This document shows positions 49,127 through 62,793 of a stretch of 64,000 nucleotides of DNA, one piece after another. Each line of letters opens with the position of its first letter. Within the stretch, counting starts at the first letter, position 1. The stretch lies in contig NZ_AP022598.1 in NCBI RefSeq assembly GCF_010725485.1, positions 5,394,001 to 5,458,000 of the forward strand, given 5' to 3'. The stretch comes from Mycolicibacterium parafortuitum. Its GTDB lineage: Bacteria; Actinomycetota; Actinomycetes; Mycobacteriales; Mycobacteriaceae. The translations under genes and the position numbers were made by a program. The notes below the pieces were generated by a model. That model was not told the origin of the DNA. It ran no database searches and was given only the letters and a program-made list of their open reading frames with translations.

Positions 49127-49138
49127 GCTGGATGAAGC

Positions 49139-49158
49139 TACAGTAAGCAATTCAGTAA
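49139..49158. promoter_or_regulatory. Operator repeat, promoter region 1 (ACAGTAAG type)
   Basis: TACAGTAA (49139-49146) and TTCAGTAA (49151-49158) form direct repeats 12 bases apart, between the divergent LLM and carboxyltransferase genes. On the minus strand TACTGT (49144-49139) lies 13 bases before the LLM ATG and fits a -10. The reverse complement of the site at 61498-61515 has the same ACAGTAAG-spacer-CAGTA arrangement. Confidence 0.65.
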
Positions 49159-49204
49159 GGTCAACGTTGCGAGCGTCGCGTCGCTACAGAACAGGAGACC
49201 GCGG

Positions 49205-50701
49205 ATGGCCAAGGCCGAGGACTGGGCGCAAACCCTCGACGAGTTGACGCGCCGCCGTGACCGTTCCCGCGCGATGGGTGGCGACGAACGGGTGGCCAAG
49301 CACCACGGCAAGGGCAAGCTCGACGCGCGCGGGCGCATCGAGCATCTCCTCGACAAGGGCTCGTTCCGCGAGTTCGGCACGCTGGTCGGCGGTGACATCG
49401 CCGCCGACGGGATCGTCACCGGTTCGGGCCTGATCGACGGCCGCCCGGTGATGGTCGGCGCCGAGGACTTCACCACGCTCGCGGGCAGCATCGGCCCGGG
49501 CGGCAACGCGAAGCGCTACCGGCTGGCCGAACTCGCGCTGCGCGACCGGATCCCGCTGGTGATGCTGCTCGAAGGCGCCGGGTTCCGGCCCAGCGGTGAG
49601 CATTACGGCCGCACCCCGACCGATCTGCTGGCCCAGGCGCAGTGCTCGGGCAAGGTCCCGACCGTCAGCGGCCTGTTCGGGCCGTCGGCCGGGCACGGCG
49701 CGCTGGTCGCCCCGGTCTGCGACTGGACGATCATGACCAACCAGGGGGCGATCTTCACTGCCGGTCCACCGGTGGTCAAAGAGTCCACCGGCGAGGAGAT
49801 CTCGAAGGAGGACCTCGGCGGCCCGTCGGTCGCGCTGGCCAGCGGCGTGATCCACAACCTCGGCGCCGACGACGCCGCGGTGCTCGACGACATCCGCCGC
49901 TACCTGTCCTACTTCCCGTCCAGTGCGTGGTCGTATCCGGTCCCGGCGCCCGCCGATGAGGCGGCGGGCCGGCGGGCCACCCCGGAACTGCTCGACATCG
50001 TGCCGCGCGGCAACCGTCAGGTCTACGACATCCGCAAGGTGCTCGACGTCGTGTTCGACGACACCGACTGGTTCGAGGTCCAGCCCAAGTTCGGCCCGGC
50101 GATGATCACCGCGCTGGCGCATCTGGGCGGGCACCCCGTCGCGGTGGTGGCCAACCAGCCCAAGGTGCTCGCCGGGTCCATCGATGCCGACGCCGCCGAC
50201 AAGGCCGCGCATTTCATCACGGTCGCCGACGCGTTCCATCTGCCGATCGTGTTCCTCGCCGACAACCCGGGGATGCTGCCCGGCAGCCGCTCCGAGAAGA
50301 CCGGTGTACTACGCAGCGGGGCAAGGATGTTCGCCGCGCAGACGGCCGCGACGACGATCAAGCTGCACGTGACGCTGCGCAAGGCGTACGGCTTCGGGTC
50401 GATGGTGATGTCGCTGCTCGGCTTCGACAACCAGAGCGCGACGTTCGCCTATCCGGGCGCGACGATGGGCGCGATGAGCGCGGCGGCGCTGAGCAAGGCG
50501 TCACACGCGACCGAGGACCTCGAGGCCAAGCTGCGCCAGGCCGAGGTGGACGCATCGTTCCGCTCTGCCGGCCATCTCGGCTTCGACGACCTGATCCACC
50601 CCGAGGAGACCCGCGACGTGCTGATCGACGCGCTGGAGCGGGGGCTCTACAGCCGCCAGGCGGCCGCGCAGCCGGTCGCCCGCACCGTCATCACACCCTG
50701 A
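49205..50701 (+). CDS. Acyl-CoA carboxyltransferase beta subunit (AccD-like)
   Basis: 498 residues with the two crotonase-like halves of biotin-dependent carboxyltransferases. The N half has the pattern ERVAKHHGKGKLDARGRIEHLLDKGSF, and the C half has FITVADAFHLPIVFLADNPGMLPG and KLHVTLRKAYGFGSMVMS. It should transfer CO2 from carboxybiotin to an acyl-CoA. No biotin carboxylase or carrier gene is near, so it must borrow an alpha subunit or have another role. The ATG at 49205 follows AGGAG. It is followed by a 21-bp stem terminator. It belongs to the set of genes flanked by the repeated operator. Confidence 0.88.
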   Translation: MAKAEDWAQTLDELTRRRDRSRAMGGDERVAKHHGKGKLDARGRIEHLLDKGSFREFGTLVGGDIAADGIVTGSGLIDGRPVMVGAEDFTTLAGSIGPGGNAKRYRLAELALRDRIPLVMLLEGAGFRPSGEHYGRTPTDLLAQAQCSGKVPTVSGLFGPSAGHGALVAPVCDWTIMTNQGAIFTAGPPVVKESTGEEISKEDLGGPSVALASGVIHNLGADDAAVLDDIRRYLSYFPSSAWSYPVPAPADEAAGRRATPELLDIVPRGNRQVYDIRKVLDVVFDDTDWFEVQPKFGPAMITALAHLGGHPVAVVANQPKVLAGSIDADAADKAAHFITVADAFHLPIVFLADNPGMLPGSRSEKTGVLRSGARMFAAQTAATTIKLHVTLRKAYGFGSMVMSLLGFDNQSATFAYPGATMGAMSAAALSKASHATEDLEAKLRQAEVDASFRSAGHLGFDDLIHPEETRDVLIDALERGLYSRQAAAQPVARTVITP

Positions 50702-50709
50702 TCTTCGGC

Positions 50710-50758
50710 GAATTCGGCGCGCTTTGCGACGCACAAGGTCGCAAAGCGCGCCGGATTC
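50710..50758. terminator. Bidirectional hairpin between convergent genes
   Basis: 50710-50730 and 50738-50758 are complementary over 21 bp with a single G-T-type mismatch, around the 7-base loop GCACAAG. It lies between the convergent stops of the carboxyltransferase (50701) and the second LLM gene (50757), overlapping the latter by two bases. No T-run is present. Confidence 0.75.
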
Positions 50759-51815
50759 ACGAGGCGGAGGCGCGGTAGGCGGCGACGATCGGTTCCAGTT
50801 CGTCGGGGGTGGCGCCGTGCATGATCACCGCATCGGCACCGTAGTCGAACTCGTTGCGCACCCGGTCGGCGCACTGCTGCGCCGAGCCGGTCGCCGAGGG
50901 CTCCAGCCACTCGTCGGGGATCAACGTCGCGATGTGCTCGATCTGCTCGGCGGTCGCCTTGTGGTCGATGCCGCCGGGCACGGACTGCACCACCGGGTCA
51001 TCGCGGAACCGTTGCAGCACAGCGGGATCCCAGCCGTTGGTGTTGATCAGCAGGTCACCGTAACCTTGCAGGTAGGTGGCCAGCCGGGCGACGGTCTTCT
51101 TCAGCCGCAGCTCCTCGGGCAGGTGATCGCCGACGGTCGCAAAGCACGACCACACCCGCACCGACGCCGGGTCCCGGCCGGCCTTCTCCGCCGCGTCCTT
51201 GACGGTCTTGACGGCGCGCGCCAGCGTCTCCGGAGTGAAGTAGGTGTGCAGGATGACGTCGTCGAACTCGCGGCCGCCGAGCGCCAGCGTCTGCGGACCG
51301 AACGCGACGATCGCGAGCCTGATGTCCTCGCGGAACTCGGGATCGAGGAACAGTATCTGGTATTTGCCGAGCGGGCCGTCGTGGTTGAAGATCATCTCGC
51401 CGTGCCAGAGCTTGCGCATCACCTGCGCGAAGTCCTCCATCTGCGCGGTGGTCACCGCCGGGATCCCGAACGCGTTGTAGATCGCGCCGATCCCCCGGCC
51501 GATGCCGAGGGTGAAGCGTCCGCCCGACAGGCGGTGCATCGTGGTCGCCCAGGAACCGGTGATCAGCGGATGGCGGGTGTTGTGGTTGGTGGCCGCGGTC
51601 GCGATCTGCATCCGGCTGGTGACGGCCAGCGCGGCGCCGGTCAGCGACGACGCCTCCTTGACGTTCCAGCGTTCGGAGATGAAACCGGTGCCGAAGCCGA
51701 GCTCCTCGCCGCGGCGCGCCTCGTCCATCAGCGTGGCGGGCCCTTCCCCCCCGGCCCCGGCCAGCAGGTAGTAACCCAACTCGTCCAGTGTGTTCGTCGC
51801 ATCGCTGCGCGTCAT
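50757..51815 (-). CDS. LLM class F420-dependent oxidoreductase (TIGR03857-like)
   Basis: 352 residues with the luciferase-like barrel: GELGYYLLAG at the start, then EARRGEELGFGTGFISERWNVKEASSLTGAALAVTSRMQIATAATNHNTRHPLITGSWATTMHRLSGGRFTLGIGRG. It is probably F420-dependent; the family name is a recollection and the reaction is unknown. The ATG at 51815 overlaps the NTF2-like stop (ATGA). It is the last gene of the five-gene operon that begins with the BVMO at 55987. Confidence 0.88.
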   Translation of the reverse strand: MTRSDATNTLDELGYYLLAGAGGEGPATLMDEARRGEELGFGTGFISERWNVKEASSLTGAALAVTSRMQIATAATNHNTRHPLITGSWATTMHRLSGGRFTLGIGRGIGAIYNAFGIPAVTTAQMEDFAQVMRKLWHGEMIFNHDGPLGKYQILFLDPEFREDIRLAIVAFGPQTLALGGREFDDVILHTYFTPETLARAVKTVKDAAEKAGRDPASVRVWSCFATVGDHLPEELRLKKTVARLATYLQGYGDLLINTNGWDPAVLQRFRDDPVVQSVPGGIDHKATAEQIEHIATLIPDEWLEPSATGSAQQCADRVRNEFDYGADAVIMHGATPDELEPIVAAYRASAS

Positions 51816-52186
51816 GCCCAGATCCCTTGTTTGTAGCCGCAATTCCAGACCTCGGTGATCCTGCCATCGACGACCCGGAAAATCTCCATGCTGCTGATCG
51901 TGGTCTCCGTGCCGTCCTTGAGCCGCATCGGGGACTGGTACACGATCGCGACATGCTCACCGTCGTCGCCGGCGACCACCAGGTTCAGGTCGAAGCGGAT
52001 GGACTCGAACATCGCCCAGTGGTCGACGACCCGGGCCACCGCCTGCTGGTGGGTCAGCGTCGTGGACTCCCCCACGTCGTGGCGGATCACGGTGTCACCG
52101 AGCAGTTGGTCGGCGAGGGCGAAGTCGCGCTCGTTCCAGACCACCAGGTTGTACTGCTCGACCACCTCGCGGGCGGAGCGGGTCAT
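51812..52186 (-). CDS. SnoaL/NTF2-like protein
   Basis: 124 residues of the cone-shaped NTF2-like fold: AREVVEQYNLVVWNERDFALADQLLGDTVIRHDVGES, then FRVVDGRITEVWNCGYKQGIWA. Members include polyketide cyclases, ketosteroid isomerases and epoxide hydrolases. A catalytic role, for example in isomerisation, is possible but the active-site residues cannot be assigned. The ATG overlaps the APH-like stop and the stop overlaps the LLM start, so it is fully coupled within the operon. Confidence 0.82.
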   Translation of the reverse strand: MTRSAREVVEQYNLVVWNERDFALADQLLGDTVIRHDVGESTTLTHQQAVARVVDHWAMFESIRFDLNLVVAGDDGEHVAIVYQSPMRLKDGTETTISSMEIFRVVDGRITEVWNCGYKQGIWA

Positions 52187-53235
52187 GCGAACACCTCCAT
52201 CGCGTCGATGTCATCGGCGGCGGCGATCGCGCGCGACGTCAGCTCCAGGCACAACGCCCGGGACCGCTCCGGTAGCGCGTCCCACCCGACCAGGGTGATC
52301 ACCGGAAGCACCATCAGGTATGCGACCGCGAAGCGGTAATGCCGCCACGCGTCGTCGAAACGGTAGGGCACGCCGAGCAATCCGAGGTACTCGCGCACCA
52401 GGGCCTCGTCGCGACCGCGGCGCACCCCGGTCGGCAACCCCTGGCTGACGAGATAGGCGATGTCGGCAGCTCCGCTGCCCACCGACGCGAACTGGAAGTC
52501 GACGATCTTGAGCCGGTCGCCGGCGAAGAACATGTTGTCCGCGCGGATGTCGCCGTGCAGCAGCATCGAGTGCTCCACAAGGGCCGCCAGGGCCTGCGGA
52601 GCCAGTTCGGCGAACCGGTCGGCGAACCGCGCGACCCGCCGCGGCACCGACGCGCCCGACTCGTCGCGGTAGATCTGCCAGCCCGGCGCGAACGCGGGCA
52701 CCAGCAGGTCACGCACGATCGGCGTCGCCAGGCTCGGAAAGTGCTGCAGTACAGTGCAGTTGGCCGGGTCGACGGACCAGGTGTGCAGCCCTGCCAGGTG
52801 CCCGACGGCCATCCGCGTCTGCTCGATCGACAGCCCGGCGAGGTGGTCGGCATTGTCCCAATCCCTCAGGTCTTCGAGCAACAGCACGAAGTCGGCCGTG
52901 TCCTCGGCGATCCGCGCGGCGTGGACGTGCGGGGTGTCCAGCGGGGCACGGCCGGCCACCTCACGGTAGAACGCCAGCTCGCGCCGGTATCCGCCGAGCA
53001 GTTCCATGGCCCCGCGCGCCTCGGATTCGGCGGGCAGCTTGGCGATCATCGTCTCGGGCACGCCGTCACCGCTCAGGTGCAGCCGGTACAGCAGCGACGA
53101 GAACCCCGAGTCGGCGGCGATCCGTTCGGCCCGCACCCCTGACACGCAGAGGCCGGCAGGCAGCCAGGGGTCGGCGCGCAGCGCCGCGGTCAGCCAGTCC
53201 GGCGTCAGTTCGTCGACACTGCCGGGCACCGTCAC
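52183..53235 (-). CDS. Phosphotransferase family protein (APH/ecdysteroid kinase-like)
   Basis: 350 residues. The catalytic loop HGDIRADNMFF and the metal segment IVDFQFASVGSGAADIAYLVSQG resemble the ecdysteroid kinase-like/APH superfamily, which phosphorylates small hydroxylated molecules. The N-lobe contains MIAKLPAESEARGAMELLGGYRRELAFYREV. The GTG at 53235 follows GGGAGG and overlaps the upstream hydrolase stop (GTGA). Antibiotic resistance is unlikely given the catabolic context; it may phosphorylate an intermediate. It is the third gene of the BVMO operon. Confidence 0.85.
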   Translation of the reverse strand: MTVPGSVDELTPDWLTAALRADPWLPAGLCVSGVRAERIAADSGFSSLLYRLHLSGDGVPETMIAKLPAESEARGAMELLGGYRRELAFYREVAGRAPLDTPHVHAARIAEDTADFVLLLEDLRDWDNADHLAGLSIEQTRMAVGHLAGLHTWSVDPANCTVLQHFPSLATPIVRDLLVPAFAPGWQIYRDESGASVPRRVARFADRFAELAPQALAALVEHSMLLHGDIRADNMFFAGDRLKIVDFQFASVGSGAADIAYLVSQGLPTGVRRGRDEALVREYLGLLGVPYRFDDAWRHYRFAVAYLMVLPVITLVGWDALPERSRALCLELTSRAIAAADDIDAMEVFA

Positions 53236-54362
53236 CGTCCGCCTCCCGAATCCGTCTGGAGCGCAGCGACTCCGCGGAGGAACTCCGAGGAGGCCGCGTG
53301 CACGCCGGGTGCGACCAGATGCCCGACGTGGCTGCCCTGGTGCCAGTACAGCTGCCCACCCCAACGCTCGTGCAGTGCGAGCGCGGGTCCGCGCATCGCC
53401 ATCTGATCGTGCCAGGCGCCGACGATCAGCCGTCGCGGCGGGGGCGGCGACGGCTCGAGGGACTGGTAGTCGACGGCCGACGACAACCGTGCGACGACGT
53501 CGGAGCTCAGCAGTGCGACGGTGTCGTCGACCGCGGCTCCCCACCGACCGAGATGCGCGGCGATCATCGCGTTCAGCCCGAAGATCGGCGTGTACACCGC
53601 GACCGCGTCGACCGGCTCGAGGTGGGAGACCAGCCCGGCCACCGGGCTTCCCATCGAGACTCCGGCGACGGCGAGCGCGGTGGCCTGCGGACGCAGCCAG
53701 CGCACCAGCGCCCGCACCTCGGAGACCACCCGCAGCATGCCCGCGACGTTGGCCAGCGGATCCATGTTCGGATACTCCGGCCACGCGTTCGCGCGCACCC
53801 CGCACCCGGGCTGCACCGGCAGGGCGACGTTGAAGCCGAGTTCCTGGTGGATCCACCGTGCGCGCGAGACCAGCAGATCGAAGGGCTGCCCCTGACCCGC
53901 ACCATGCACCCACACCAACCACGGTCTGCGTTCGGAGTCGGTGCGGCACACGTGCACGACCGCTGTCGCTTTGCCGCCGAACCCCTCCGCGGCCAGCGTG
54001 TCCGGCAGGTGCGGATCATGGTCGAACGTGAGCTGCTCGTAGTGGTGCCGGCCGAACCTGCGCCGGCGCAGCGACCCGATGTCGACGGGATCGGGTTCGG
54101 CGTTGGCGCCGGCCATACCGAGGGCACTCAGCTCCTCTGCGGCCGCCACGCACGAGGCCACCGAGCGTTCCAGTTTCGGCGGCGGTGCGGTCAACGTCAT
54201 CCCGGTCAGCGCCAGTTCGTCGAGTGCCACCTCGCCGAGTTGCCGGATTCCCGCCATCGACAACGGGTTCCACGAGCCGGAGGCGACAACCGCACCGTGC
54301 GCGCGGGGCAGTATCCCGGCGAGGTCGGCGCCGATCCGCACGAGACGCTCGGAGGTCCTCAC
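53232..54362 (-). CDS. Alpha/beta hydrolase family protein
   Basis: 376 residues. The nucleophile elbow is AGVSMGSPVAG (Ser near residue 240), preceded by LVWVHGAGQGQPFDL, which may supply the oxyanion hole. The catalytic His is probably in HQGSHVGHLV. The first 110 residues form a helical segment not seen in simple hydrolases. It could hydrolyse an ester made by the adjacent BVMO. The GTG at 54362 overlaps the BVMO stop (GTGA), so the two are made together. Confidence 0.82.
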   Translation of the reverse strand: MRTSERLVRIGADLAGILPRAHGAVVASGSWNPLSMAGIRQLGEVALDELALTGMTLTAPPPKLERSVASCVAAAEELSALGMAGANAEPDPVDIGSLRRRRFGRHHYEQLTFDHDPHLPDTLAAEGFGGKATAVVHVCRTDSERRPWLVWVHGAGQGQPFDLLVSRARWIHQELGFNVALPVQPGCGVRANAWPEYPNMDPLANVAGMLRVVSEVRALVRWLRPQATALAVAGVSMGSPVAGLVSHLEPVDAVAVYTPIFGLNAMIAAHLGRWGAAVDDTVALLSSDVVARLSSAVDYQSLEPSPPPPRRLIVGAWHDQMAMRGPALALHERWGGQLYWHQGSHVGHLVAPGVHAASSEFLRGVAALQTDSGGGR

Positions 54363-55987
54363 GCGAGTGTGAACCCCGCGTAGCCCTGCGCGGCGATCTC
54401 CTCGCACTGCCTGCGGTATTCGGGGATACCTGCCGTGTAGCCCATGTACCGGCGCTTCTTACCCGGCACGTTGCCGCCGTTGTACCAGGAGTTGCACGAC
54501 GGATGCACCAGCACGGTGGGTTCTACGATCGCGGCAGCCTGATCCATCCAGTTCTGCTGCGCGTCGGGCTGCGCTTCGATCGTCCGGTGACCGTGCGTGC
54601 GCAGATACGAGATGCACGCGCCGATCCACTCCACGTTCTGCTCCATCGCAGCGACGAAATTCGCTGCTGCCGAGGGGCTTCCGGGACCCTGGATGGTGAA
54701 CAGGTTCGGGAAGCCGGCGACCGCCATCCCGAGATAGCTCAGCGGACCCTCCGTCGCCCAGAAGTCGCCCAGCGACGCGCCACCGCGGCCGCGGACGTCG
54801 ATGCGGCTCAGCGCTCCGGTCATCGCGTCGAAGCCGGTCGCATACACGATCACGTCGAGTTCGTGGACGCCGCTGCCGGTCTTGATGCCGGTGGGCAACA
54901 CCGACACGATCGGGTCGGCGCGCAGGTCGACCAGCGTCACATTGTCGCGGTTGTAGGTCTGGTAGTAGCCCTGGTCGATGATCGGCCGCTTGCACGCGAA
55001 CGGATGGCTCGGGGTCAACGCCTTCGCGGTGGCCGGATCGGTGACGATGCGGGCGACCGCTTCGCCGTAGAGTTCGGCGGCCATCCGGTTGGCCTCGATG
55101 TCGAAGAAGAGATCGCCCCAATCCAGCGCGCCCATGATGCCGCGCTCCTCCACGGCGCGGATCCGGTCCTGTTTCGATGCGGACTTCAGCGGCGGCTTGG
55201 CCAGCATCTCCAGCAGCACCGAGAACGCGCTGAGCCGGGCGGCGCCCACCGGGTGTTCGCGCTGGGCGGCCCGGATCTGCGGGTACTGCGCCTTGAGGTC
55301 GTCGAGTTCACCCGGGGCGAAGGGACGCACCGTCCACGGCAGCGTGTAGGCCGCGGAGCGCTGGAAGACGGTGAGGTGGCCGGCCTCCTCGGCCACCACC
55401 GGGATCAGCTGCACCCCGGTGGATCCGGTGCCGACCACGCCGACACGTCGGCCGCGCAGGTCCACACCGGCCTCGGGCCAGCGGCTGGTGAACAGCGACG
55501 AACCGGCGAAGGTGTCCATGCCCGGGATGGTCGGTTCCAGTGGGACGGAAAGGATGCCGGTGGCCGCGATCAGATACGGCGCAGCATAGGTCTGCCCCGG
55601 CGCAGTGGCGACCACCCATTCGGTGGCGTCCTCGTCAAACCGCATCGCGGTGACGTCGGTGTGGAATGCGATGTCGCGGCGCAGATCGAGCCGGTCGGCG
55701 ACGAAGTTCAGATACGCCTCGATCTCGGGCTGGGTCGGCATGGTCTCCGTCCACACCCACTCCTGCTGGATCTCGTCGGAGAAGCTGTAGGAGTACTCGA
55801 TGCTCTCGATGTCGCACCGCGCGCCCGGATACCGGTTGAACAGCCATGTGCCGCCGACGTTGTGTGCACGCTCGAGCACCCGGACACGCAGGCCGAGTCC
55901 ACGCAGATGGTGCAGCGCGTAGAGACCGGAGAAACCGGCGCCGACGACGATCGTGTCGTAACGCGCAGGGCCTGGTTCGATCGTCAC
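54359..55987 (-). CDS. Flavin-containing monooxygenase (atypical Baeyer-Villiger fingerprint)
   Basis: 542 residues. The FAD motif is TIVVGAGFSGLYALHHL and the NADPH motif is VGVVGTGSTGVQLI. The fingerprint region reads FAGSSLFTSRWP, so the His of FxGxxxHxxxW[P/D] is replaced by Phe. The general sequence is still close to Baeyer-Villiger enzymes (WLFNRYPGARCDIESIEYSYSFS). The activity may therefore be altered or the enzyme may be an N- or S-oxygenase. The ATG at 55987 follows GGAGGA. It is the first gene of a five-gene operon and is divergent from the Rieske gene across 95 bases with an operator palindrome. Confidence 0.9.
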   Translation of the reverse strand: MTIEPGPARYDTIVVGAGFSGLYALHHLRGLGLRVRVLERAHNVGGTWLFNRYPGARCDIESIEYSYSFSDEIQQEWVWTETMPTQPEIEAYLNFVADRLDLRRDIAFHTDVTAMRFDEDATEWVVATAPGQTYAAPYLIAATGILSVPLEPTIPGMDTFAGSSLFTSRWPEAGVDLRGRRVGVVGTGSTGVQLIPVVAEEAGHLTVFQRSAAYTLPWTVRPFAPGELDDLKAQYPQIRAAQREHPVGAARLSAFSVLLEMLAKPPLKSASKQDRIRAVEERGIMGALDWGDLFFDIEANRMAAELYGEAVARIVTDPATAKALTPSHPFACKRPIIDQGYYQTYNRDNVTLVDLRADPIVSVLPTGIKTGSGVHELDVIVYATGFDAMTGALSRIDVRGRGGASLGDFWATEGPLSYLGMAVAGFPNLFTIQGPGSPSAAANFVAAMEQNVEWIGACISYLRTHGHRTIEAQPDAQQNWMDQAAAIVEPTVLVHPSCNSWYNGGNVPGKKRRYMGYTAGIPEYRRQCEEIAAQGYAGFTLA

Positions 55988-56006
55988 TGTTCCTCCGGGC
56001 TCGACA

Positions 56007-56027
56007 TACTGTCGCTGTTACAGTAAC
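56007..56027. promoter_or_regulatory. Operator repeat, promoter region 2 (GTTACAGTAAC palindrome)
   Basis: GTTACAGTAAC at 56017-56027 is an inverted repeat around a single base. An extra half-site TACTGT lies at 56007-56012. The site sits between the BVMO operon and the Rieske/FadD genes. TACAGT (56019-56024) and TACTGT on the other strand fit -10 hexamers facing each gene. Confidence 0.65.
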
Positions 56028-56082
56028 GATGTCCGCAGATGCGTGTGAGTAGATCCGGCCGATCGGTGCGAGGAGTCGCGAC

Positions 56083-57132
56083 ATGAAAGTCCCGTTCACC
56101 TGGAAGGTCACCGGATGGTTCATGATCGGCTGGTCCGCCGAGTACCAGGTCGGCGACGTCAAGGCGCTCCGGTACTTCGGTGAGGATCTGGCCGCCTATC
56201 GCGACGAATCCGGCGAACTGCATGTGCTGGAGGCGCACTGCAAGCACCTCGGCGCCCACATCGGGCACGGCGGCACGGTGGTCGGCGACTGCATCGAGTG
56301 CCCGTTCCACGGCTGGCGCTGGGGCCCGCACGGCCACAACACCTACATCCCGTACCAGCCCGACCGGCCCAACAAGGGTCTGAGACTGCGGTCCTATCCC
56401 GTCCGGGAGCAGTACGGCTGCATCTTCATCTGGTACCAGCCCAACGGTGACCCGCCGCGGTGGGAGATGCCGGACATCTTCTTGAAGTTCCCGCAGTTCG
56501 AGACCGACCCCGCCGCGTACTACCGCCCGTACCCGGAGTTCTCCAGGCGCGCCGACGGCATCCCCGTGCACCCGCAGATCGTCGCCGAGAACGGTCCGGA
56601 CAGTTCACATTTCCGGTATGTGCACAAGGCGACGGTCACCCCGGTGTGTCTGCACTGGGAGCACGTCGACGAGGAGTGGCGGTTCCTGACCGGCTGGCCC
56701 GACGTGCGCAGCGACGATCCGGACACGATGGCGCTGAAGATCCACAGCCACTACAGCGGCCTCGGGTTCGCGATGAGCGTGTTCGAGGGCTCGTCGAACC
56801 ACCGCCTGATCTTCGCGTGCACCCCGGTCGACGACGAGGTGTCGGACATGTTCTATTCGATCTGGTGGCCCAAGGTGGCGGGCGAGACATCCGACGTCCC
56901 CCCGCCGGAGGTCCGCGAGAAGGTCGAGCGGCAGTTCCTCAAGACCGTGTGGGAGGACGTCGACATCTGGGAGCACCAGAAGTACATCGAGAACCCGCCG
57001 CTGGCCAAGATCGACGCGAAACCCTATATGGCGATGCGCAAGTGGGCTCAGCAGTTCTACGAGGTGCCGCCGGTCGGCGATCCCGTGGCCACCCGGGGAG
57101 GATTCCGCTCGGCCGGCTCGCGACACCCATGA
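56083..57132 (+). CDS. Rieske [2Fe-2S] non-heme iron oxygenase, KshA-like
   Basis: 349 residues. The Rieske cluster motif is CKHLGAH...CIECPFHGW (CxH and CxxH). The catalytic mononuclear iron site is in NGPDSSHFRYVHKA. C-terminal sequences (VWEDVDIWEHQKYIENPPL, MRKWAQQFYEV) resemble the oxygenase component of 3-ketosteroid 9-alpha-hydroxylase. It should hydroxylate a bulky, probably ring-containing substrate with electrons from a separate reductase, which is not in the window. The start ATG follows GAGGAG. The FadD gene follows after 60 bases on the same strand. Confidence 0.92.
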   Translation: MKVPFTWKVTGWFMIGWSAEYQVGDVKALRYFGEDLAAYRDESGELHVLEAHCKHLGAHIGHGGTVVGDCIECPFHGWRWGPHGHNTYIPYQPDRPNKGLRLRSYPVREQYGCIFIWYQPNGDPPRWEMPDIFLKFPQFETDPAAYYRPYPEFSRRADGIPVHPQIVAENGPDSSHFRYVHKATVTPVCLHWEHVDEEWRFLTGWPDVRSDDPDTMALKIHSHYSGLGFAMSVFEGSSNHRLIFACTPVDDEVSDMFYSIWWPKVAGETSDVPPPEVREKVERQFLKTVWEDVDIWEHQKYIENPPLAKIDAKPYMAMRKWAQQFYEVPPVGDPVATRGGFRSAGSRHP

Positions 57133-57192
57133 CCATACAACTTTGCGGTATCTGTCTACCTGGTGTGGATGCGGCAGTCTAGAGTCCATCGC

Positions 57193-58845
57193 ATGACCGA
57201 GCCGACTCAGTTCACCGTCCCGGCCGCCGCCGATGCCATCGCCGCAGTGATCGGCGATCGGGAGTTCATCGTCCAGGGATCGCGCCGTTTCACCTACTCG
57301 CAGATCATCGAGCGCTCGAATCGGCTGGCGACGTTCCTGCACGCCCAGGGCCTCGGCTGCCATGTCGAGCGCGGCGCGCTGGCCGGCCATGAGGCCGGGC
57401 AGGACCTGCTCGGCATCTACGCCCACAACGGTCCCGAGTACGTCGAAGGCATGCTGGGCGCCTGGCGGGCCCGCGTCGCGCCGTTCAACGTGAACTACCG
57501 CTACGTCAAGAGCGAGCTGCAGTACCTGTTGTCGGACTCCGGCGCGACCGCGCTGCTCTACCACGCCGCGTTTGCACCCCGGCTGGCCGAGGTGCTGCCC
57601 GACCTTCCCGCGCTGAAGGTGCTGATCCAGATCGCCGACGACTCGGGCAACGAACTGCTGCCCGGCGCAGTCGATTACGAGTCCATCGTGGCCGACGGGC
57701 CCGCCGACCCGCCGCCGGTGCAACCGTCGCCCGACGATCTGTACGTGCTCTACACCGGCGGGACCACCGGAATGCCCAAGGGCGTGCTGTGGCGCCAGCA
57801 CGACATCTTCATGACCTCGTTCGGCGGCCGCAGCCTCTACACCGGTGAGCTCGTCTCGACCCTCGACGACATCGCCACGCGCTGCGCTGACTCCCCCGGC
57901 TCGACGCTGATGGTGCTGCCGCCGCTGATGCACGGCGCCGCCCAGTGGGCGGTCTTCACCGCGATGAACACCGGTCAGACCGTCGTGTTCTCGGCAGTCA
58001 CCGATCATCTGGACGTCGACGACGTCGTCGCCACGATCGAGCGGGAGAAGGTACTGGCCGTCACCGTGGTCGGCGATGCGATGGCCCGGCCGCTGGCCGA
58101 CGCGTTCGAGCGCACCAGCGCCGATCTGTCCTCGCTGGCGGTGGTCGCCAACGGCGGCGCCCAGCTGACCCCGACGGCCAAACAGCGCCTGATCGACGTC
58201 AAGGCGAACCTGATGGTGGTCGACGGCGTCGGCTCGTCGGAGACCGGTGCGCAGATGACGCACATGTCGGCGCCGGGCGCGGTGTCGACCGGGAAGTTCA
58301 CCGCGGGCCCCGACACCTTCGTCGCCGCAGAGGATCTCGGCTCGATCCTGAGCCCCGGTCACGACGGCATCGGCTGGCTCGCGCAGCGCGGGTACGTGCC
58401 GCTCGGCTACAAGGGGGACGCGACGAAGACCGCCGCGACGTTCCCCGTCATCGACGGTGTGCGCTACTCGATCCCGGGTGACCGCGCCCGCCATCTCGCC
58501 GACGGCGCCGTCGAACTGCTGGGCCGCGACTCGGTCACGATCAACTCCGGCGGCGAGAAGATCTTCGCCGAGGAGGTCGAGTCGGCGATCGCATCGCATC
58601 CGGCCGTGGCCGACGTGGTGGTCGCCGGACGGCCCAGCGAGCGCTGGGGCCAGGAGGTGGTCGCCGTCGTCGCGCTGGCCTCCGGCGCGCAGGCGAGCGC
58701 CGACGACCTCATCGAGCACGCCTCGACGGTGATCGCGCGCTACAAGCTGCCGAAAGCGGTGGTGTTCCGGCCGGTCATCGAGCGCAGCCCGGCGGGCAAG
58801 GCCGACTACCGGTGGGCCCGCGAACAGGCGGTCAGCGGTTCCTGA
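57193..58845 (+). CDS. Acyl-CoA synthetase (FadD family, FadD19-like)
   Basis: 550 residues of the AMP-forming acyl-CoA synthetase family. The P-loop-like motif is YVLYTGGTTGMPKGVLWRQ, with the VLWRQ extension seen in steroid-side-chain ligases such as FadD19 (recalled). Other motifs are GSSETGAQMTH and the C-terminal hinge and Lys region LLGRDSVTINSGGEKIFAEEV...ERSPAGKADYRW. It should activate a carboxylic acid to its CoA thioester with ATP. The ATG at 57193 is used. Its last 14 bases overlap the convergent aldehyde dehydrogenase gene. Confidence 0.92.
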   Translation: MTEPTQFTVPAAADAIAAVIGDREFIVQGSRRFTYSQIIERSNRLATFLHAQGLGCHVERGALAGHEAGQDLLGIYAHNGPEYVEGMLGAWRARVAPFNVNYRYVKSELQYLLSDSGATALLYHAAFAPRLAEVLPDLPALKVLIQIADDSGNELLPGAVDYESIVADGPADPPPVQPSPDDLYVLYTGGTTGMPKGVLWRQHDIFMTSFGGRSLYTGELVSTLDDIATRCADSPGSTLMVLPPLMHGAAQWAVFTAMNTGQTVVFSAVTDHLDVDDVVATIEREKVLAVTVVGDAMARPLADAFERTSADLSSLAVVANGGAQLTPTAKQRLIDVKANLMVVDGVGSSETGAQMTHMSAPGAVSTGKFTAGPDTFVAAEDLGSILSPGHDGIGWLAQRGYVPLGYKGDATKTAATFPVIDGVRYSIPGDRARHLADGAVELLGRDSVTINSGGEKIFAEEVESAIASHPAVADVVVAGRPSERWGQEVVAVVALASGAQASADDLIEHASTVIARYKLPKAVVFRPVIERSPAGKADYRWAREQAVSGS

Positions 58846-60295
58846 GCCGTTTATGGGTCCGCCGACGCGCCCTGCGTAGCGCCAGCACGGTGGTCAACCT
58901 CATCGACGGCGTGAACGGCGGCGCGGCCCGCCCGGTGATGGTGAACGGCAGGTCGCTGCCCACCACCGTGCGGTAGTGGCTGAACGCGTCGAATCCCGCC
59001 TTGCCGTGGTAGGCACCCATCCCGCTGCGGCCCACCCCGCCGAACGGGGCCGCCGACGGGATCATCTGCGCGGCGAAGTCGTTGCGCGCGACGCCGCCGC
59101 TGCGGGTGCGGGCGACGAACGACCGGAAATCGGCGGTGTCGGGCCCGAACCAGTAGGCCACCAGCGGGGCGGGCCGCGCGTTGACGTAGTCGACCACCTC
59201 GGCCAGCCGTTCGTAGGTGCGGATCGTCAGCACCGGCCCGAACGTCTCCTCGTCGGCCAGGCGCATGCTGTCGTCCACGTCGCGCACCAGGGTCGGGGCG
59301 ATCTTGCGGGTGTCCCGGTCGGGCAGCGTCTCCCCCGGCGGCGAAACCGTCTCGACCCGTGCGCCTTTGGCGTGCGCGTCCTCGACCAGCCCGACGACAC
59401 GGTCGAAGTTGGCCTCGTTCACCGACGAGCAGTAGTCGTCGTTGGCGACGATGGCCGGGAACATCGCCCGCCAGGCGTCGCGGACGGTGGCGACGAACAG
59501 TTCGGCGTGTTTGGCCGGCACGAACACGTAGTCCGGGCATACGCACACCTGACCGCCGTTGATCATGCGGCCCTGAGCGATTCGCGTCGCAGCGCGGCGG
59601 ATATCGGCGTCGGGAGCGACCACCACCGGGTTCTTGCCGCCGAGTTCCAGGGTCACCGGCACCAGGTTGGTCGCCGCGGCCTGTCCGACCAGCGCACCGA
59701 CCGTCGGCGAACCGGTGAAGAACAGGTGGTCGAACGGAAGCGCCGCGAATGCGGCGCCGACCTGTGCGTCACCGGTCATCACGGTCAGTTCGGCCGGATC
59801 GAAGTACCTCGGCGCGAGTTCGGCCATCAGGGCGGCGGTGCGCGGGGTGACCTCCGACATCTTGATCATCACGCGGTTACCCGCGGCGAACGCCGCCGCG
59901 GCGGGCAGGATCACCAGGTTCAGCGGGAAATTCCAGGGTCCGATGATGCCGACGACCCCCAGCGGGCACGGGTGCACCTCGGCGCGCAGGCCGAGCCGGC
60001 CGGCCGGGCGCATCAGCCTGGCCGGCTTCATCCATTGCCGGACATGGGATCTGGTGTGCTCGATCACCGAGATCATGCCCATGATCTCGGTGAACAGGGT
60101 CGCGGCCCGCGGCCTGGTGCCGAAGTCCTCGGCCATCGCGTCGACGAACGCGTCCGCGTTGTCGAGAACAAGCGCCAGCAGTCGGTCGATGCGGTTGCGC
60201 CGCAACGCCACATCGGGTGGCCCGTCGGCCAGGAACGACGCCCGTTGGCAGTCCAGCAGCTCCGACATCGGTTGCGCGGTCACCGTCTGTGTCAT
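58832..60295 (-). CDS. Aldehyde dehydrogenase, class 3/coniferyl aldehyde type
   Basis: 487 residues. The cofactor segment is GPWNFPLNLVILPAAAAFAAGN, the general-base motif LELGGKNPVVV and the catalytic Cys251 in MINGGQVCVCPDY. The short N-terminus is that of class 3/coniferyl aldehyde dehydrogenases. A basic, partly hydrophobic tail (TTVLALRRARRRTHKRLRNR) may touch the membrane. It should oxidise a hydrophobic aldehyde. The ATG overlaps the DUF2834 stop (ATGA). It is the third gene of the operon starting with the SDR at 61439. Confidence 0.92.
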   Translation of the reverse strand: MTQTVTAQPMSELLDCQRASFLADGPPDVALRRNRIDRLLALVLDNADAFVDAMAEDFGTRPRAATLFTEIMGMISVIEHTRSHVRQWMKPARLMRPAGRLGLRAEVHPCPLGVVGIIGPWNFPLNLVILPAAAAFAAGNRVMIKMSEVTPRTAALMAELAPRYFDPAELTVMTGDAQVGAAFAALPFDHLFFTGSPTVGALVGQAAATNLVPVTLELGGKNPVVVAPDADIRRAATRIAQGRMINGGQVCVCPDYVFVPAKHAELFVATVRDAWRAMFPAIVANDDYCSSVNEANFDRVVGLVEDAHAKGARVETVSPPGETLPDRDTRKIAPTLVRDVDDSMRLADEETFGPVLTIRTYERLAEVVDYVNARPAPLVAYWFGPDTADFRSFVARTRSGGVARNDFAAQMIPSAAPFGGVGRSGMGAYHGKAGFDAFSHYRTVVGSDLPFTITGRAAPPFTPSMRLTTVLALRRARRRTHKRLRNR

Positions 60296-60654
60296 GTCTG
60301 CACCTTGTGCGCCGAACGGTGACGGGCCAGCGCGATCTGCCGGACGATCAGGAAGATCGGGAAGCCCACACTCACGGCGACGACCATACTGATCACGAAA
60401 TACAGCCAGACCCGGGAGATTCCGAGCCGGCGCGCCTCGACCGCCATGAACACGAAGACCGCGGCGCCGGCGAGCACCACGTCGTTGGTCAGTGAGGCAG
60501 CAGCATGGTTGGCGTATCCCGCGCGGATGAAGTCGAGCAGGCTCTCCCCCTGCCCGCTCGTGAGGAACGCGACGTTGTGCCACCACGTCGCGACCAGCGC
60601 GACGACGGCGATCACCGCGTAGACCGCGCACAGAGCCCTGTCGCCTCGGGTCAT
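60292..60654 (-). CDS. DUF2834 family membrane protein
   Basis: 120 residues with about three membrane helices: a first near ALCAVYAVIAVVALVATWW, a middle region SLTNDVVLAGAAVFVFMAVEARRLGI, and a third RVWLYFVISMVVAVSVGFPIFLIVRQI. The order and the Glu-Ala-Arg-Arg motif between helices two and three match DUF2834 as I recall it. The function is unknown. It is coupled at both ends (ATGA) between the SDR and the aldehyde dehydrogenase, so it may help anchor them or handle a hydrophobic substrate. Confidence 0.82.
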   Translation of the reverse strand: MTRGDRALCAVYAVIAVVALVATWWHNVAFLTSGQGESLLDFIRAGYANHAAASLTNDVVLAGAAVFVFMAVEARRLGISRVWLYFVISMVVAVSVGFPIFLIVRQIALARHRSAHKVQT

Positions 60655-61439
60655 ACCTGGACGCTCTCCGGCATCGGATAGACCAGCGCCGCGGTGAAGC
60701 CCGCGTCGACCTGGATGTCCTGACCGTTGATCCACCGCGCCTCCGGTGAGGTCAGGAAGCCGATCGCCGGAGTCATGTCGTCGACGGTGCCGTGCCGCCC
60801 GATGGTCGCGCGCACGCCGTCGAGCATCTCCTTGCCCATCGCCTTCTCGAAGTCACCGAGAATCGGGGTCTCGGTGGGGCCGGGGCTGACGGTGTTGACC
60901 CGCACCCCGTGCTCGCGCCACGCGAGGCCGGACAGGCGCTTGGCGTACAGCACCAAAGCCTGCTTGGAGAAGTAGTAGGCCATCGCGGGCTCCTGCGCGG
61001 CGAGCCAACGCAGCACGGACGCGGCGTCTTTGGCGTCGAGGAGTCCGGCCAGCAGTGCAGTGTTGTTCTCCCAGCCGAGCGCCGCCGTCGACGCGACCGC
61101 CACCATCGCGCCGCCCCGGTTCATCCGCGGCAGCATGCCGTCGAGCATCAACCGGGCGCCCAGGTAGTTCACTGTCAGCACGTCGGCAGCGTCGGCGGTA
61201 CCGGGAATGCCGGCGACATGCGCGAGCACATCCCAGCCGGTGCCGATCTGTGCGAGTGTCGCGTCGATCTGCCCGGTATCGCGCAGATCGCAGACGAGCC
61301 ATTCCGCCACGGGAAGGCTACGGGGCCTGGCGTCGACGGCCAGCACATGATCGCCGCGGGCCTGAAACCACTGCGCCGTCGCGGCGCCGATTCCCGACCC
61401 GGCTCCGACCACCACGACGCGGCGCGCTTCTGCAGACAT
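60651..61439 (-). CDS. SDR family oxidoreductase, coniferyl-alcohol/3-alpha-hydroxysteroid dehydrogenase type
   Basis: 262 residues. The cofactor motif is VVVVGAGSGIGAATAQWFQARG with Asp of AVDARP suggesting NAD. The active-site Ser is in VASTAALG and the Tyr-Lys in YYFSKQAL. The segment RVNTVSPGPTETPILGDFEKAMG and the end WINGQDIQVDAGFTAAL fit the coniferyl-alcohol dehydrogenase/HsdA branch. It should oxidise an alcohol to a ketone or aldehyde for the following aldehyde dehydrogenase. The ATG at 61439 follows AGGAGGG. It is the first gene of its three-gene operon. Confidence 0.92.
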   Translation of the reverse strand: MSAEARRVVVVGAGSGIGAATAQWFQARGDHVLAVDARPRSLPVAEWLVCDLRDTGQIDATLAQIGTGWDVLAHVAGIPGTADAADVLTVNYLGARLMLDGMLPRMNRGGAMVAVASTAALGWENNTALLAGLLDAKDAASVLRWLAAQEPAMAYYFSKQALVLYAKRLSGLAWREHGVRVNTVSPGPTETPILGDFEKAMGKEMLDGVRATIGRHGTVDDMTPAIGFLTSPEARWINGQDIQVDAGFTAALVYPMPESVQV

Positions 61440-61497
61440 CGTTGAGCCCTCCTGCCGATCCGCGGTCACAGCGGCCGCCACAGATTCTAGTGACTTC

Positions 61498-61515
61498 TAC
61501 TGTAGTTCTTACTGT
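61498..61515. promoter_or_regulatory. Operator repeat, promoter region 3a (TACTGT direct repeats)
   Basis: TACTGT occurs at 61498-61503 and 61510-61515, direct repeats 12 bases apart. Read on the minus strand this is ACAGTAAG-N4-ACAGTAG, nearly the same as the site at 49139-49158. TACAGT on the minus strand (61503-61498) fits a -10 hexamer for the SDR gene. Confidence 0.65.
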
Positions 61516-61559
61516 TTTGCCGCCAATAGACTCTTTCCGGCCGGAACGCCGCTGTACAG

Positions 61560-61586
61560 CCGCTACTGTAACCGTTACAGTAGCGG
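61560..61586. promoter_or_regulatory. 27-bp perfect palindrome at the P450 start (promoter region 3b)
   Basis: Arms 61560-61572 and 61574-61586 are perfect reverse complements around one central base; the core is CTGTAAC-C-GTTACAG. TACAGT (61576-61581) is followed by exactly 6 bases and the ATG at 61588, matching a leaderless promoter. A second small palindrome, GCTGTACAGC, lies just upstream (61551-61560). A protein bound here would cover the -10 and the transcription start. Confidence 0.7.
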
Positions 61587-61587
61587 A

Positions 61588-62793
61588 ATGGAGACTCCGG
61601 TTCAGGATGTCGCGGAGGACGAGCCGATCGATCTGCGCGACCCCTATCCGATGTTCGCCCGCCGGCGCGGCGAGGGCGGCGTTTTCCGGGGTTCGGTGAT
61701 GGACTGGTCGAAGACCCCTGACTCACTCAAACCCGAGAACCTCTATGCCGCAGTGTCGTTCGACGCGGTCAACCGGATCTTCCGGGACGGTAAGACGTTC
61801 AACTCGAAGATCTACGACTCCACCATCGGGCTGTTCATCGGGCCGACAATCCTCGCGATGGAGGGCAAACCGCACTGGGAGCACCGCAACCTCGTCTCCG
61901 CGGCGTTCAAGTCGCGGTCGCTGGCGCGCTGGGAACCTGAGATCGTGCGCCCGGTCGTCAACGGCCTGATCGACGAGTTCCTCGACAAGGGTGAAGCGGA
62001 CCTGGTGCGCGACTTCACCTTCGAGTTCCCCACCCGAGTCATCTCCCGGCTGCTCGGGCTGCCGGAGGAGGATCTGCCGTGGTTCCGCCAGCGCGCGGTC
62101 GAGCTGATCAGCTACACGGTCAAGTACGAGCGCGCGTTCGAGGCGTCGGCGACGTTGAAGGACTATTTCCTGACGCAGATCGACAAGCGCCGCTCCGCAC
62201 CGACCGAGGACATCATCGGCGACCTGGTGTCGGCCGAGATCGACGGCGAGCGACTGTCCGACGAGGCCATCTACTCGTTCCTGCGGCTGCTGTTGCCCGC
62301 AGGCCTGGAGACCACCTACCGGTCGTCGGGCAACCTGCTGTACCTGCTGCTGACCCACCGTGACCAGTTCGACGCCGTCTGCGCCGACCACGAATTGATC
62401 GCGCCTGCAATCGAGGAGGGGCTGCGCTACGAGACGCCGCTGACCACCGTGCAGCGGTTCGCGACCGAGGACACCGAGATCGACGGCGTCGAGATCCCGG
62501 CCGGTTCGGTGATCGACGTGTGCATCGGTTCCGCCAACCGGGACGGCACGCGTTGGGAGCGCTCGGAGGAGTTCGACATCTTCCGGAAGCGGCTGCCGCA
62601 CATCTCGTTCGCCGCCGGGGAACACACCTGCATGGGGCTGCACCTGGCCCGGATGGAGACGCGGGTGGCAGTGGAGACGCTGCTGAACCGGCTCACCGAC
62701 ATCGAGTTGCTCGCCGACGGCGATCCGCACATCCACGGTCAGCCCTTCCGGTCCCCGACGACGATCCCGGTGCGCTTCGCCCCCGCGAAATAG
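61588..62793 (+). CDS. Cytochrome P450
   Basis: 401 residues. The heme loop is ISFAAGEHTCMGLHLAR with Cys348 as ligand; it has FAAG in place of the usual FGxG. The I-helix motif is LPAGLETTYRSSGN, with Glu at the acid position, a known variant. The K-helix is EEGLRYETPL. It should hydroxylate a hydrophobic substrate and needs ferredoxin partners not seen nearby. There is no ribosome site; a -10 hexamer 6 bases before the ATG suggests a leaderless message. It is the only gene on the plus side of promoter region 3. Confidence 0.92.
   Translation: METPVQDVAEDEPIDLRDPYPMFARRRGEGGVFRGSVMDWSKTPDSLKPENLYAAVSFDAVNRIFRDGKTFNSKIYDSTIGLFIGPTILAMEGKPHWEHRNLVSAAFKSRSLARWEPEIVRPVVNGLIDEFLDKGEADLVRDFTFEFPTRVISRLLGLPEEDLPWFRQRAVELISYTVKYERAFEASATLKDYFLTQIDKRRSAPTEDIIGDLVSAEIDGERLSDEAIYSFLRLLLPAGLETTYRSSGNLLYLLLTHRDQFDAVCADHELIAPAIEEGLRYETPLTTVQRFATEDTEIDGVEIPAGSVIDVCIGSANRDGTRWERSEEFDIFRKRLPHISFAAGEHTCMGLHLARMETRVAVETLLNRLTDIELLADGDPHIHGQPFRSPTTIPVRFAPAK

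What the first reader, a model, noticed from the sequence alone, without database searches (positions are those of the whole stretch)
49139..61586. A shared operator links three divergent promoters of a catabolic island
The three divergent intergenic regions at about 49.14, 56.01 and 61.50-61.59 kb all carry the half-site ACAGTA(A)/T(T)ACTGT, and I did not find comparable clusters in the other intergenic regions I read. Two sites (49139-49158 and, on the opposite strand, 61498-61515) are direct repeats 12 bases apart with nearly the same sequence. Two others (56017-56027 and 61560-61586) are palindromes built from the same half-site. The promoters would control at least thirteen genes from 46.8 to 62.8 kb. 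The regulator is not in the window. I know of no described mycobacterial regulon with this motif (KstR and KstR2 sites differ), so this may be a new regulon.
Basis: partly seen in the sequence, partly recalled or inferred. Interest (0 to 1): 0.85.

Follow-up and report, generated by a model that had tools for sequence, protein, structure and literature searches.

The report
New mycobacterial catabolic regulon and operator
A 19-letter DNA switch site repeats in front of the gene groups of a large compound-degrading region in environmental mycobacteria, and a repressor gene lying just outside the window, a relative of the tetracycline repressor, is the likely reader.

Summary
The "direct repeats" and "palindromes" are one 19-bp operator, TACTGTAAnnnTTACAGTA; its half-site TAC[T/A]GTA is nearly its own reverse complement. 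In the 6.04-Mb genome, 6 of 7 places within 2 mismatches of a relaxed form lie in one 32-kb stretch. Of 148 genus genomes, 89 of the 92 with the island P450 carry the exact palindrome, 0 of the 56 without it. The site is also at the same ALDH promoter in another genus. The likely reader is TetR-B, a tetracycline-repressor-type protein encoded 17.5 kb beyond the window: matched in 92 of 92 island genomes, without a close paralog in this genome, and with its own promoter site within 3 mismatches in 30 of 30 loci examined. A paralog with the same recognition helix, TetR-A, sits beside the P450 in 13 of 31 inspected genomes but not here. KstR's motif differs. No binding is shown; the substrate is unknown, probably a cyclic terpenoid- or steroid-like compound. 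A new member of a known kind.

The parts
49139..49157 (.). Operator variant TACAGTAAGCAATTCAGTA between LLM/CYP_A (-) and acyl-CoA carboxyltransferase (+)
   Evidence: PWM 15.3; the same variant, 3 mismatches to consensus, in 16 of 17 genomes where this promoter could be scored; about 30 bp with one variable column in 8 own-clade genomes
56007..56025 (.). Operator TACTGTCGCTGTTACAGTA between BVMO operon (-) and Rieske-FadD (+)
   Evidence: PWM 18.4; <=2 mismatches in 20 of 24 genomes where this promoter could be scored
61498..61516 (.). Operator TACTGTAGTTCTTACTGTT upstream of SDR-ALDH1 (-)
   Evidence: PWM 19.7; an exact palindrome at this place in closest relative G027 (307323-307341, one search list; alignment)
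61564..61582 (.). Perfect operator TACTGTAACCGTTACAGTA overlapping the inferred -10 of CYP_B
   Evidence: PWM 34.8; <=2 mismatches in 31 of 31 genomes
61553..61590 (+). Inferred CYP_B promoter: TGTACA 61553-61558, 17-bp spacer, TACAGT 61576-61581 (-10, inside the operator), ATG 61588-61590
   Evidence: Read from sequence and from blocks conserved in 8 genomes; inference
46854..48092 (-). CYP_A, cytochrome P450 (nearest solved: P450terp)
48089..49150 (-). LLM F420-dependent oxidoreductase, TIGR03617 (MSMEG_2256 family), above cut-off; start codon uncertain
49205..50701 (+). Acyl-CoA carboxyltransferase (ACCT)
50757..51842 (-). LLM F420-dependent oxidoreductase, TIGR03857 (MSMEG_2249 family), above cut-off
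51812..52186 (-). SnoaL-like protein
52183..53250 (-). Ecdysteroid-kinase-like/APH phosphotransferase (N-terminus uncertain)
53232..54407 (-). Alpha/beta-hydrolase-like protein (label from reading the translation; no NCBIfam match)
54359..55987 (-). Baeyer-Villiger monooxygenase (nearest solved: phenylacetone and steroid monooxygenases)
56083..57132 (+). KshA-like Rieske oxygenase
57163..58845 (+). Acyl-CoA synthetase (PRK07798 family, above cut-off)
58832..60631 (-). Aldehyde dehydrogenase ALDH1
60651..61439 (-). SDR dehydrogenase (coniferyl-alcohol dehydrogenase subfamily, just above cut-off)
61588..62793 (+). CYP_B, cytochrome P450; marker gene of the island
62851..64000 (-). Aldehyde dehydrogenase ALDH2; the frame continues past the window to about 64437, where operator 64426-64444 lies between it and a CaiB-type CoA transferase

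Best explanation
The island is one TetR-family regulon. A dimeric repressor, TetR-B (TetR_N plus TetR_C_1 domains; G000:C1:5475477-5476232, 17.5 kb right of the window), binds the 19-bp operator WACTGTAAnnnTTACAGTW and variants of it in five divergent promoters (49.14, 56.01, 61.5, 64.43 and 81.3 kb in window coordinates). At CYP_B the operator fills the spacer and -10, so bound repressor excludes RNA polymerase. A pathway intermediate, plausibly an acyl-CoA, binds the C-terminal domain, releases the repressor and induces about sixteen catabolic genes and the repressor itself. SHOWN: the sites, their conservation, their co-occurrence with island and TetR-B, and a conserved site in TetR-B's own promoter. 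INFERRED: that TetR-B is the protein bound, repression rather than activation, operon limits, the ligand, and a cyclic terpenoid- or steroid-like substrate.
For: Island clustering: 6 of 7 own-genome places within 32 kb (relaxed pattern written after seeing the sites). Co-occurrence: exact site in 89 of 92 genomes with the CYP_B ortholog, 0 of 56 without; reversed-pattern control hit 1 of 148 genomes. Operators with <=2 mismatches at CYP_B 31 of 31, ALDH2 26 of 26, BVMO 20 of 24, thiolase 13 of 17. The site accompanies island-type genes in other neighbourhoods: CYP_C-like P450 in G020, G123, G049; thiolase in G094. Other genus (g9): exact site at the same ALDH2/CaiB promoter in G290 and G378. 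For TetR-B: matched in 92 of 92 CYP_B genomes; in a 401-genome family sample 41 of 41 site-bearing genomes have a homolog and 0 of 329 without one have the site (outside the genus 4 of 26 against 0 of 323, p=2.5e-5); its promoter region has TACTATAGGACTTACAGTA or a near form, <=2 mm in 24 and <=3 mm in 30 of the 30 best-matching loci, reversed control 0; G290 and G378 homologs have TACTGTACCGTTTACCGTA upstream; the next match in this genome is 25% identical; helix GVTSIYWYFR is identical in the 21 A, B and other-genus sequences printed. Model and sequence match tetracycline repressors.
Against: No binding or expression data. 21 genus genomes have TetR-B without CYP_B and show no exact palindrome, and 22 of 26 non-genus genomes with a homolog lack it. 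Of the six other-genus homologs looked at (55-66% identical), two (G452, G510) have no site within 3 mismatches in the fetched 1.5-kb flanks. TetR-B's own site is a constant asymmetric variant, not the consensus, and so is the 49139 site; these may belong to a different specificity class. 3 of 92 island genomes (G038, G139, G141) lack an exact site (G139 and G141 have 1-2-mismatch sites; G038 not inspected). Two of the 92 TetR-B matches are doubtful (G132 covers residues 3-154 only; G147 is 58% identical with a stop inside). No site was found at the own-genome thiolase promoter or near CYP_C. The AlphaFold model is only moderate (pLDDT 76.9).
Confidence: 0.75

Rival explanations
1. The palindromes belong to TetR-A, a paralog encoded directly downstream of CYP_B in many species; in this lineage, which lacks TetR-A, they are read by an unidentified unlinked regulator or are decaying relics, and TetR-B controls only its own variant-type sites.
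For: TetR-A is the gene directly after CYP_B, behind its operator, in 13 of 31 inspected genomes. The 25 TetR-A genomes's truncated list average 3.4 exact sites, the eight own-clade genomes have 0-3. TetR-B and carboxyltransferase sites form a distinct asymmetric class.
Against: Sites with <=2 mismatches are kept at CYP_B in 18 of 18 inspected genomes without TetR-A (no TetR-A there even at E<=1 apart from one 24-bit chance match), and G004 and G013, which lack it, have four exact sites each. In the own clade the flanks have turned over around the sites. The g9 homologs fall on the TetR-B side of a midpoint-rooted tree, yet two of those genomes have the exact ALDH2/CaiB operator. The recognition helix is the same.
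Confidence: 0.15
2. A known steroid regulator (KstR or KstR2) reads the sites.
For: Catabolic genes resemble steroid genes; KstR half-sites such as ACTAGAAC and ACTGTAAC are similar; the KstR motif also overlaps a -10 region (passages of PMC1995591).
Against: The KstR core is TnnAACnnGTTnnA with a 2-bp centre; at 61564 AAC and GTT are 1 bp apart, and the invariant part here is ACTGTAAnnnTTACAGT. Exact sites are absent from all 56 genomes without CYP_B, whereas KstR is described as highly conserved in mycobacteria (abstract start).
Confidence: 0.03
3. The motif is only -10 promoter sequence (TANNNT) in AT-rich intergenic DNA, with chance symmetry.
For: TACAGT is the plausible -10 at CYP_B and overlaps other promoters.
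Against: Both arms at fixed spacing are conserved at CYP_B in 31 of 31 genomes and are rare elsewhere; simulated 6 Mb never reaches the scores.
Confidence: 0.02

Closest known systems
KstR regulon of mycobacteria (TetR family; PMC1995591, passages read)
   Same: TetR-type regulator, palindromes in divergent promoters and overlapping a -10, many lipid or steroid catabolic genes, autoregulation
   Different: Operator half-site and spacing (TAGAACnnGTTCTA); broadly conserved regulon, whereas this one tracks an island found in 92 of 148 genus genomes
Tetracycline repressor TetR(B)/(D) and tetO
   Same: Best sequence and fold matches of TetR-B; TetR_C_1 domain; tetO is also an odd-centred 19-bp palindrome (recalled, not from a call)
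   Different: 19-27% identity in the 50 fold matches listed; different operator bases (recalled); neighbours of TetR-B are enoyl-CoA hydratase and thiolase genes
The 30 mycobacterial TetR motifs of Balhana et al. 2015, BkaR among them (PMC4482099; passages read)
   Same: Conserved palindromes in divergent intergenic regions of TetR genes
   Different: Genes are listed by M. tuberculosis number and the logos are images not held here, so their motifs could not be compared

Membership tests
TetR-family regulon | Regulator with TetR_N helix-turn-helix and a TetR-type C-terminal domain | tested here: met
   PF00440 51.3 bits, PF02909 45.1 bits, both above cut-off; fold match to TetR
TetR-family regulon | Short palindromic operator in target promoters, overlapping promoter elements | tested here: met
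   the promoter elements themselves are read from sequence, not mapped
TetR-family regulon | Autoregulation: operator in the regulator's own divergent promoter | tested here: met
   Sequence only: variant site within 3 mismatches in 30 of 30 loci; other genus, 4 of 6 homologs
TetR-family regulon | Direct binding and ligand-induced release | not testable with these tools
   Needs EMSA and ligand assays
KstR regulon | Operator core TnnAACnnGTTnnA with 2-bp centre | tested here: not met
   Weight matrix has AA-nnn-TT with an odd centre against the KstR core seen
KstR2 regulon | KstR2 operator (recalled as containing CAAGnnCTTG) | tested here: not met
   No such element in the 19-bp matrix; the KstR2 motif itself is recalled only

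The most novel reading that the evidence does not exclude
Two anciently diverged TetR paralogs with an identical recognition helix share one operator code across a catabolic island of roughly 35 kb. The local paralog (TetR-A, beside the P450) comes and goes between species, and where it is missing, as here, its operators are retained under the distal paralog TetR-B: a natural regulatory hand-over within a regulon of unknown, probably alicyclic terpenoid- or steroid-like, substrate.
Probability: 0.45. Interest if true: 0.62.

Novelty: new member of a known kind. Interest (0 to 1): 0.52.

Why it matters
It assigns an operator, a gene set and a candidate repressor to a large, widespread mycobacterial island rich in P450s, F420-type oxidoreductases and a Baeyer-Villiger enzyme. 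The searches made here found no description of this motif. The operator tells which scattered genes belong to the pathway and gives a ready screen for its substrate. The paired paralogs offer a testable case of repressor replacement with operators retained.

Tried and rejected

Collection scan for the exact 18-base palindrome: 30 loci, 3 mycobacterial. The other 27, by title mostly Bacteroidota and Clostridia- or Bacillus-type organisms, were not inspected and are taken as chance.

Off-island place 1035654: 3 mismatches to the consensus; no island gene matched in the 3-kb locus; taken as chance. A seventh weak PWM hit, 78582 (score 8.6), lies within the simulated range and is not claimed.

Literature: motif and gene searches listed no paper recognisable as describing this operator; most hits were unrelated, and the lists were cut (20 of 200, 10 of 18 shown). 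PMC1995591 and PMC4482099 were read as passages only; all others only as listings with abstract starts. Subscription papers and motif images are not covered.

Enzyme substrate: PDB and family searches give classes but no substrate; CYP_B has no PDB relative at E<=1e-60.

Counts: one search was made from tables that I transcribed (148 genomes); the cut between ortholog (>=73% identity) and paralog (<=57%) was mine. One search dropped five genomes with only weak TetR matches (G050, G055, G088, G092, G146; E 1e-42 to 1e-63). One search used the 30 best-matching TetR-B loci, not all 113 genomes. One search used 31 genomes whose loci I had fetched, of 92; promoters off the fetched stretch are not counted (n = 24, 26, 17, 17), so the own-genome ALDH2 site, whose gene crosses two loci, is not in its 26. 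Search spans were 200-700 bp upstream; in G034 one site serves both ALDH2 and thiolase and is counted for both; G013's exact BVMO-side site lies about 1 kb off, beyond an inserted gene, and counts as a miss. The weight matrix counted some genomes twice through overlapping loci. One search's match list is truncated, so TetR-A was not scored in all 92 genomes. The relaxed pattern was written after seeing the own-genome sites; the matrix, from relatives outside the own clade, was not. The site of G452 was not inspected.
Full report
OBSERVATION. The three divergent intergenic regions carry the sites. Re-reading them shows one element. A 19-bp operator, TACTGTAAnnnTTACAGTA, fits all of them: perfect at 61564-61582, two mismatches at 56007-56025, three mismatches at 61498-61516 and at 49139-49157 (sequences).

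CHANCE. None of 100 shuffles of the window has the palindrome even with three mismatches. In the whole 6.04-Mb chromosome the relaxed pattern TACTNTANNNNTTACAGTA with up to two mismatches finds seven places, six of them between 5443139 and 5475316 (window coordinates 49139 to 81316), one elsewhere; the reversed control pattern gives three strand hits. That pattern was written after seeing the sites. A matrix made from relatives outside the own clade scores the same six at 15.3-34.8, against a best of 9.6 in 6 Mb of simulated sequence.

TWO MORE PROMOTERS. The region right of the window adds a divergent promoter at 64426-64444 between ALDH2 (minus) and a CaiB-type CoA transferase (plus), and one at 81298-81316 between an enoyl-CoA hydratase (minus) and a TetR gene (plus). 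ALDH2 is a single frame from 62851 to about 64437; it only looks truncated because the window ends.

CONSERVATION. Of 148 genus genomes, 92 have a CYP_B ortholog at 73% identity or more. 89 of these have the exact pattern WACTGTAANNNTTACAGTW; none of the 56 others does. The exceptions are G038, G139 and G141; G139 and G141 have sites with one or two mismatches, G038 was not inspected. In 31 inspected genomes the site with at most two mismatches is present at CYP_B in 31 of 31, ALDH2 26 of 26, BVMO 20 of 24 and thiolase 13 of 17 (n is the number of genomes in which that promoter lay on a fetched stretch). At the carboxyltransferase it is a constant three-mismatch variant, TACAGTAAGCRATTCAGTA, in 16 of 17. 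In eight own-clade genomes the operators stand out from turned-over flanks at the CYP_B and BVMO promoters; at the carboxyltransferase promoter a longer stretch is conserved. Island-type genes found in other neighbourhoods also have the site: a CYP_C-like P450 in G020, G123 and G049, the thiolase in G094. In another genus (g9) two genomes, G290 and G378, have the exact site between ALDH2 (76% identity) and a CaiB-type gene (39-40%). A third g9 genome, G510, has an exact site before an enoyl-CoA hydratase gene in a different gene set; the site of G452 (g23) was not inspected.

REGULATOR. The TetR gene at 5475477-5476232 (TetR-B; its start codon is uncertain) has TetR_N and TetR_C_1 domains. Its best-scoring solved relatives in sequence and fold are tetracycline repressors and engineered derivatives (AlphaFold model of moderate confidence, pLDDT 76.9). 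It is matched in 92 of 92 CYP_B genomes and in 21 others; two of the 92 matches are doubtful (G132 partial, G147 58% with a stop). In a 401-genome family sample all 41 site-bearing genomes have a homolog and none of the 329 without a homolog has the site; outside the genus this is 4 of 26 against 0 of 323. The region upstream of its helix carries a site with at most two mismatches in 24 of 30 loci and at most three in 30 of 30, mostly TACTATAGGACTTACAGTA, with no reversed-control hit. In G290 and G378 the homolog near the ALDH2 site has TACTGTACCGTTTACCGTA upstream, a second homolog a three-mismatch site; the G452 and G510 homologs have none within three mismatches. This genome has no other close relative of TetR-B; the next match is 25% identical.

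PARALOG. In 13 of 31 inspected genomes a second gene, TetR-A, lies directly downstream of CYP_B and so behind its operator; it is absent there from the eight own-clade genomes and from ten others, 18 in all (no convincing match even at E<=1 in those loci). The tree puts the 13 TetR-A on one branch (support 100/100) and the other-genus proteins on the TetR-B side (midpoint root, for drawing only). The helix GVTSIYWYFR is identical in the 21 sequences printed there. Operators are kept at CYP_B in 18 of 18 genomes lacking TetR-A, and G004 and G013 among them have four exact sites each, so TetR-A cannot be their only reader. The simplest reading is that the TetR-B type is the ancestral reader and TetR-A shares its code. 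Against it, TetR-B's own site and the carboxyltransferase site form an asymmetric class of their own, so differing affinities or partners remain possible.

MECHANISM (inferred). At CYP_B a TGTACA / 17 bp / TACAGT promoter can be read, with the -10 inside the right arm and the A of the ATG seven bases after it, suggesting a leaderless transcript and repression by exclusion. Release by a pathway metabolite is assumed by analogy with TetR proteins.

PATHWAY. Classes found: P450s (CYP_A nearest P450terp; CYP_B without a close solved relative), Baeyer-Villiger enzyme nearest phenylacetone and steroid monooxygenases, KshA-like Rieske oxygenase, two F420-type LLM families, acyl-CoA synthetase, carboxyltransferase, SDR, aldehyde dehydrogenases; beyond the window CoA transferase, molybdopterin oxidoreductase, thiolases, an amidohydrolase and a DHDPS-type aldolase. 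Hydratase and acyl-CoA dehydrogenase labels there are from reading translations. This fits an alicyclic, terpenoid- or steroid-like substrate but proves none.

KNOWN WORK. KstR's motif and autoregulation were checked in passages of PMC1995591; half-site and spacing differ. PMC4482099 lists TetR motifs of mycobacteria but its logos are not readable here (passages). Searches for the motif and the gene set listed no recognisable report. The finding is therefore an apparently undescribed TetR-type regulon, a new member of a known kind.

Noticed in passing
   Followed up: partly
L064:14582 (window coordinate 78582): A weak seventh operator-like site (TACTGTACACCTATCGGTA, score 8.6) in front of an enoyl-CoA hydratase-like gene in the extended island; within the range of simulated sequence.
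   Followed up: no
L011:5482-5500: In a Mycobacterium metagenome-assembled genome the exact operator stands before a BVMO fragment at the contig end; the rest of the contig holds, from reading translations, CoA-transferase-, HMG-CoA-lyase- and IclR-like genes, so this BVMO sits in another neighbourhood.
   Followed up: no
L115:8629-8650 (G000:C1:3613629): A lone half-site GTTACAGTA with a TTACAG repeat stands beside a different TetR gene, divergent to an FAD-linked-oxidase-like gene; possibly that regulator's own operator.
   Followed up: partly
L176:1109 and L177:2603: In genus g9 a second TetR-B-like paralog also has an operator-like site (TACTGTTGCCCATACAGTA, 3 mismatches) upstream, next to a distant P450.
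   Followed up: no
L181:4462-4480 (G510): An exact operator in genus g9 precedes an enoyl-CoA hydratase gene, followed by an LLM-family gene, a different gene set from the island.
   Followed up: no
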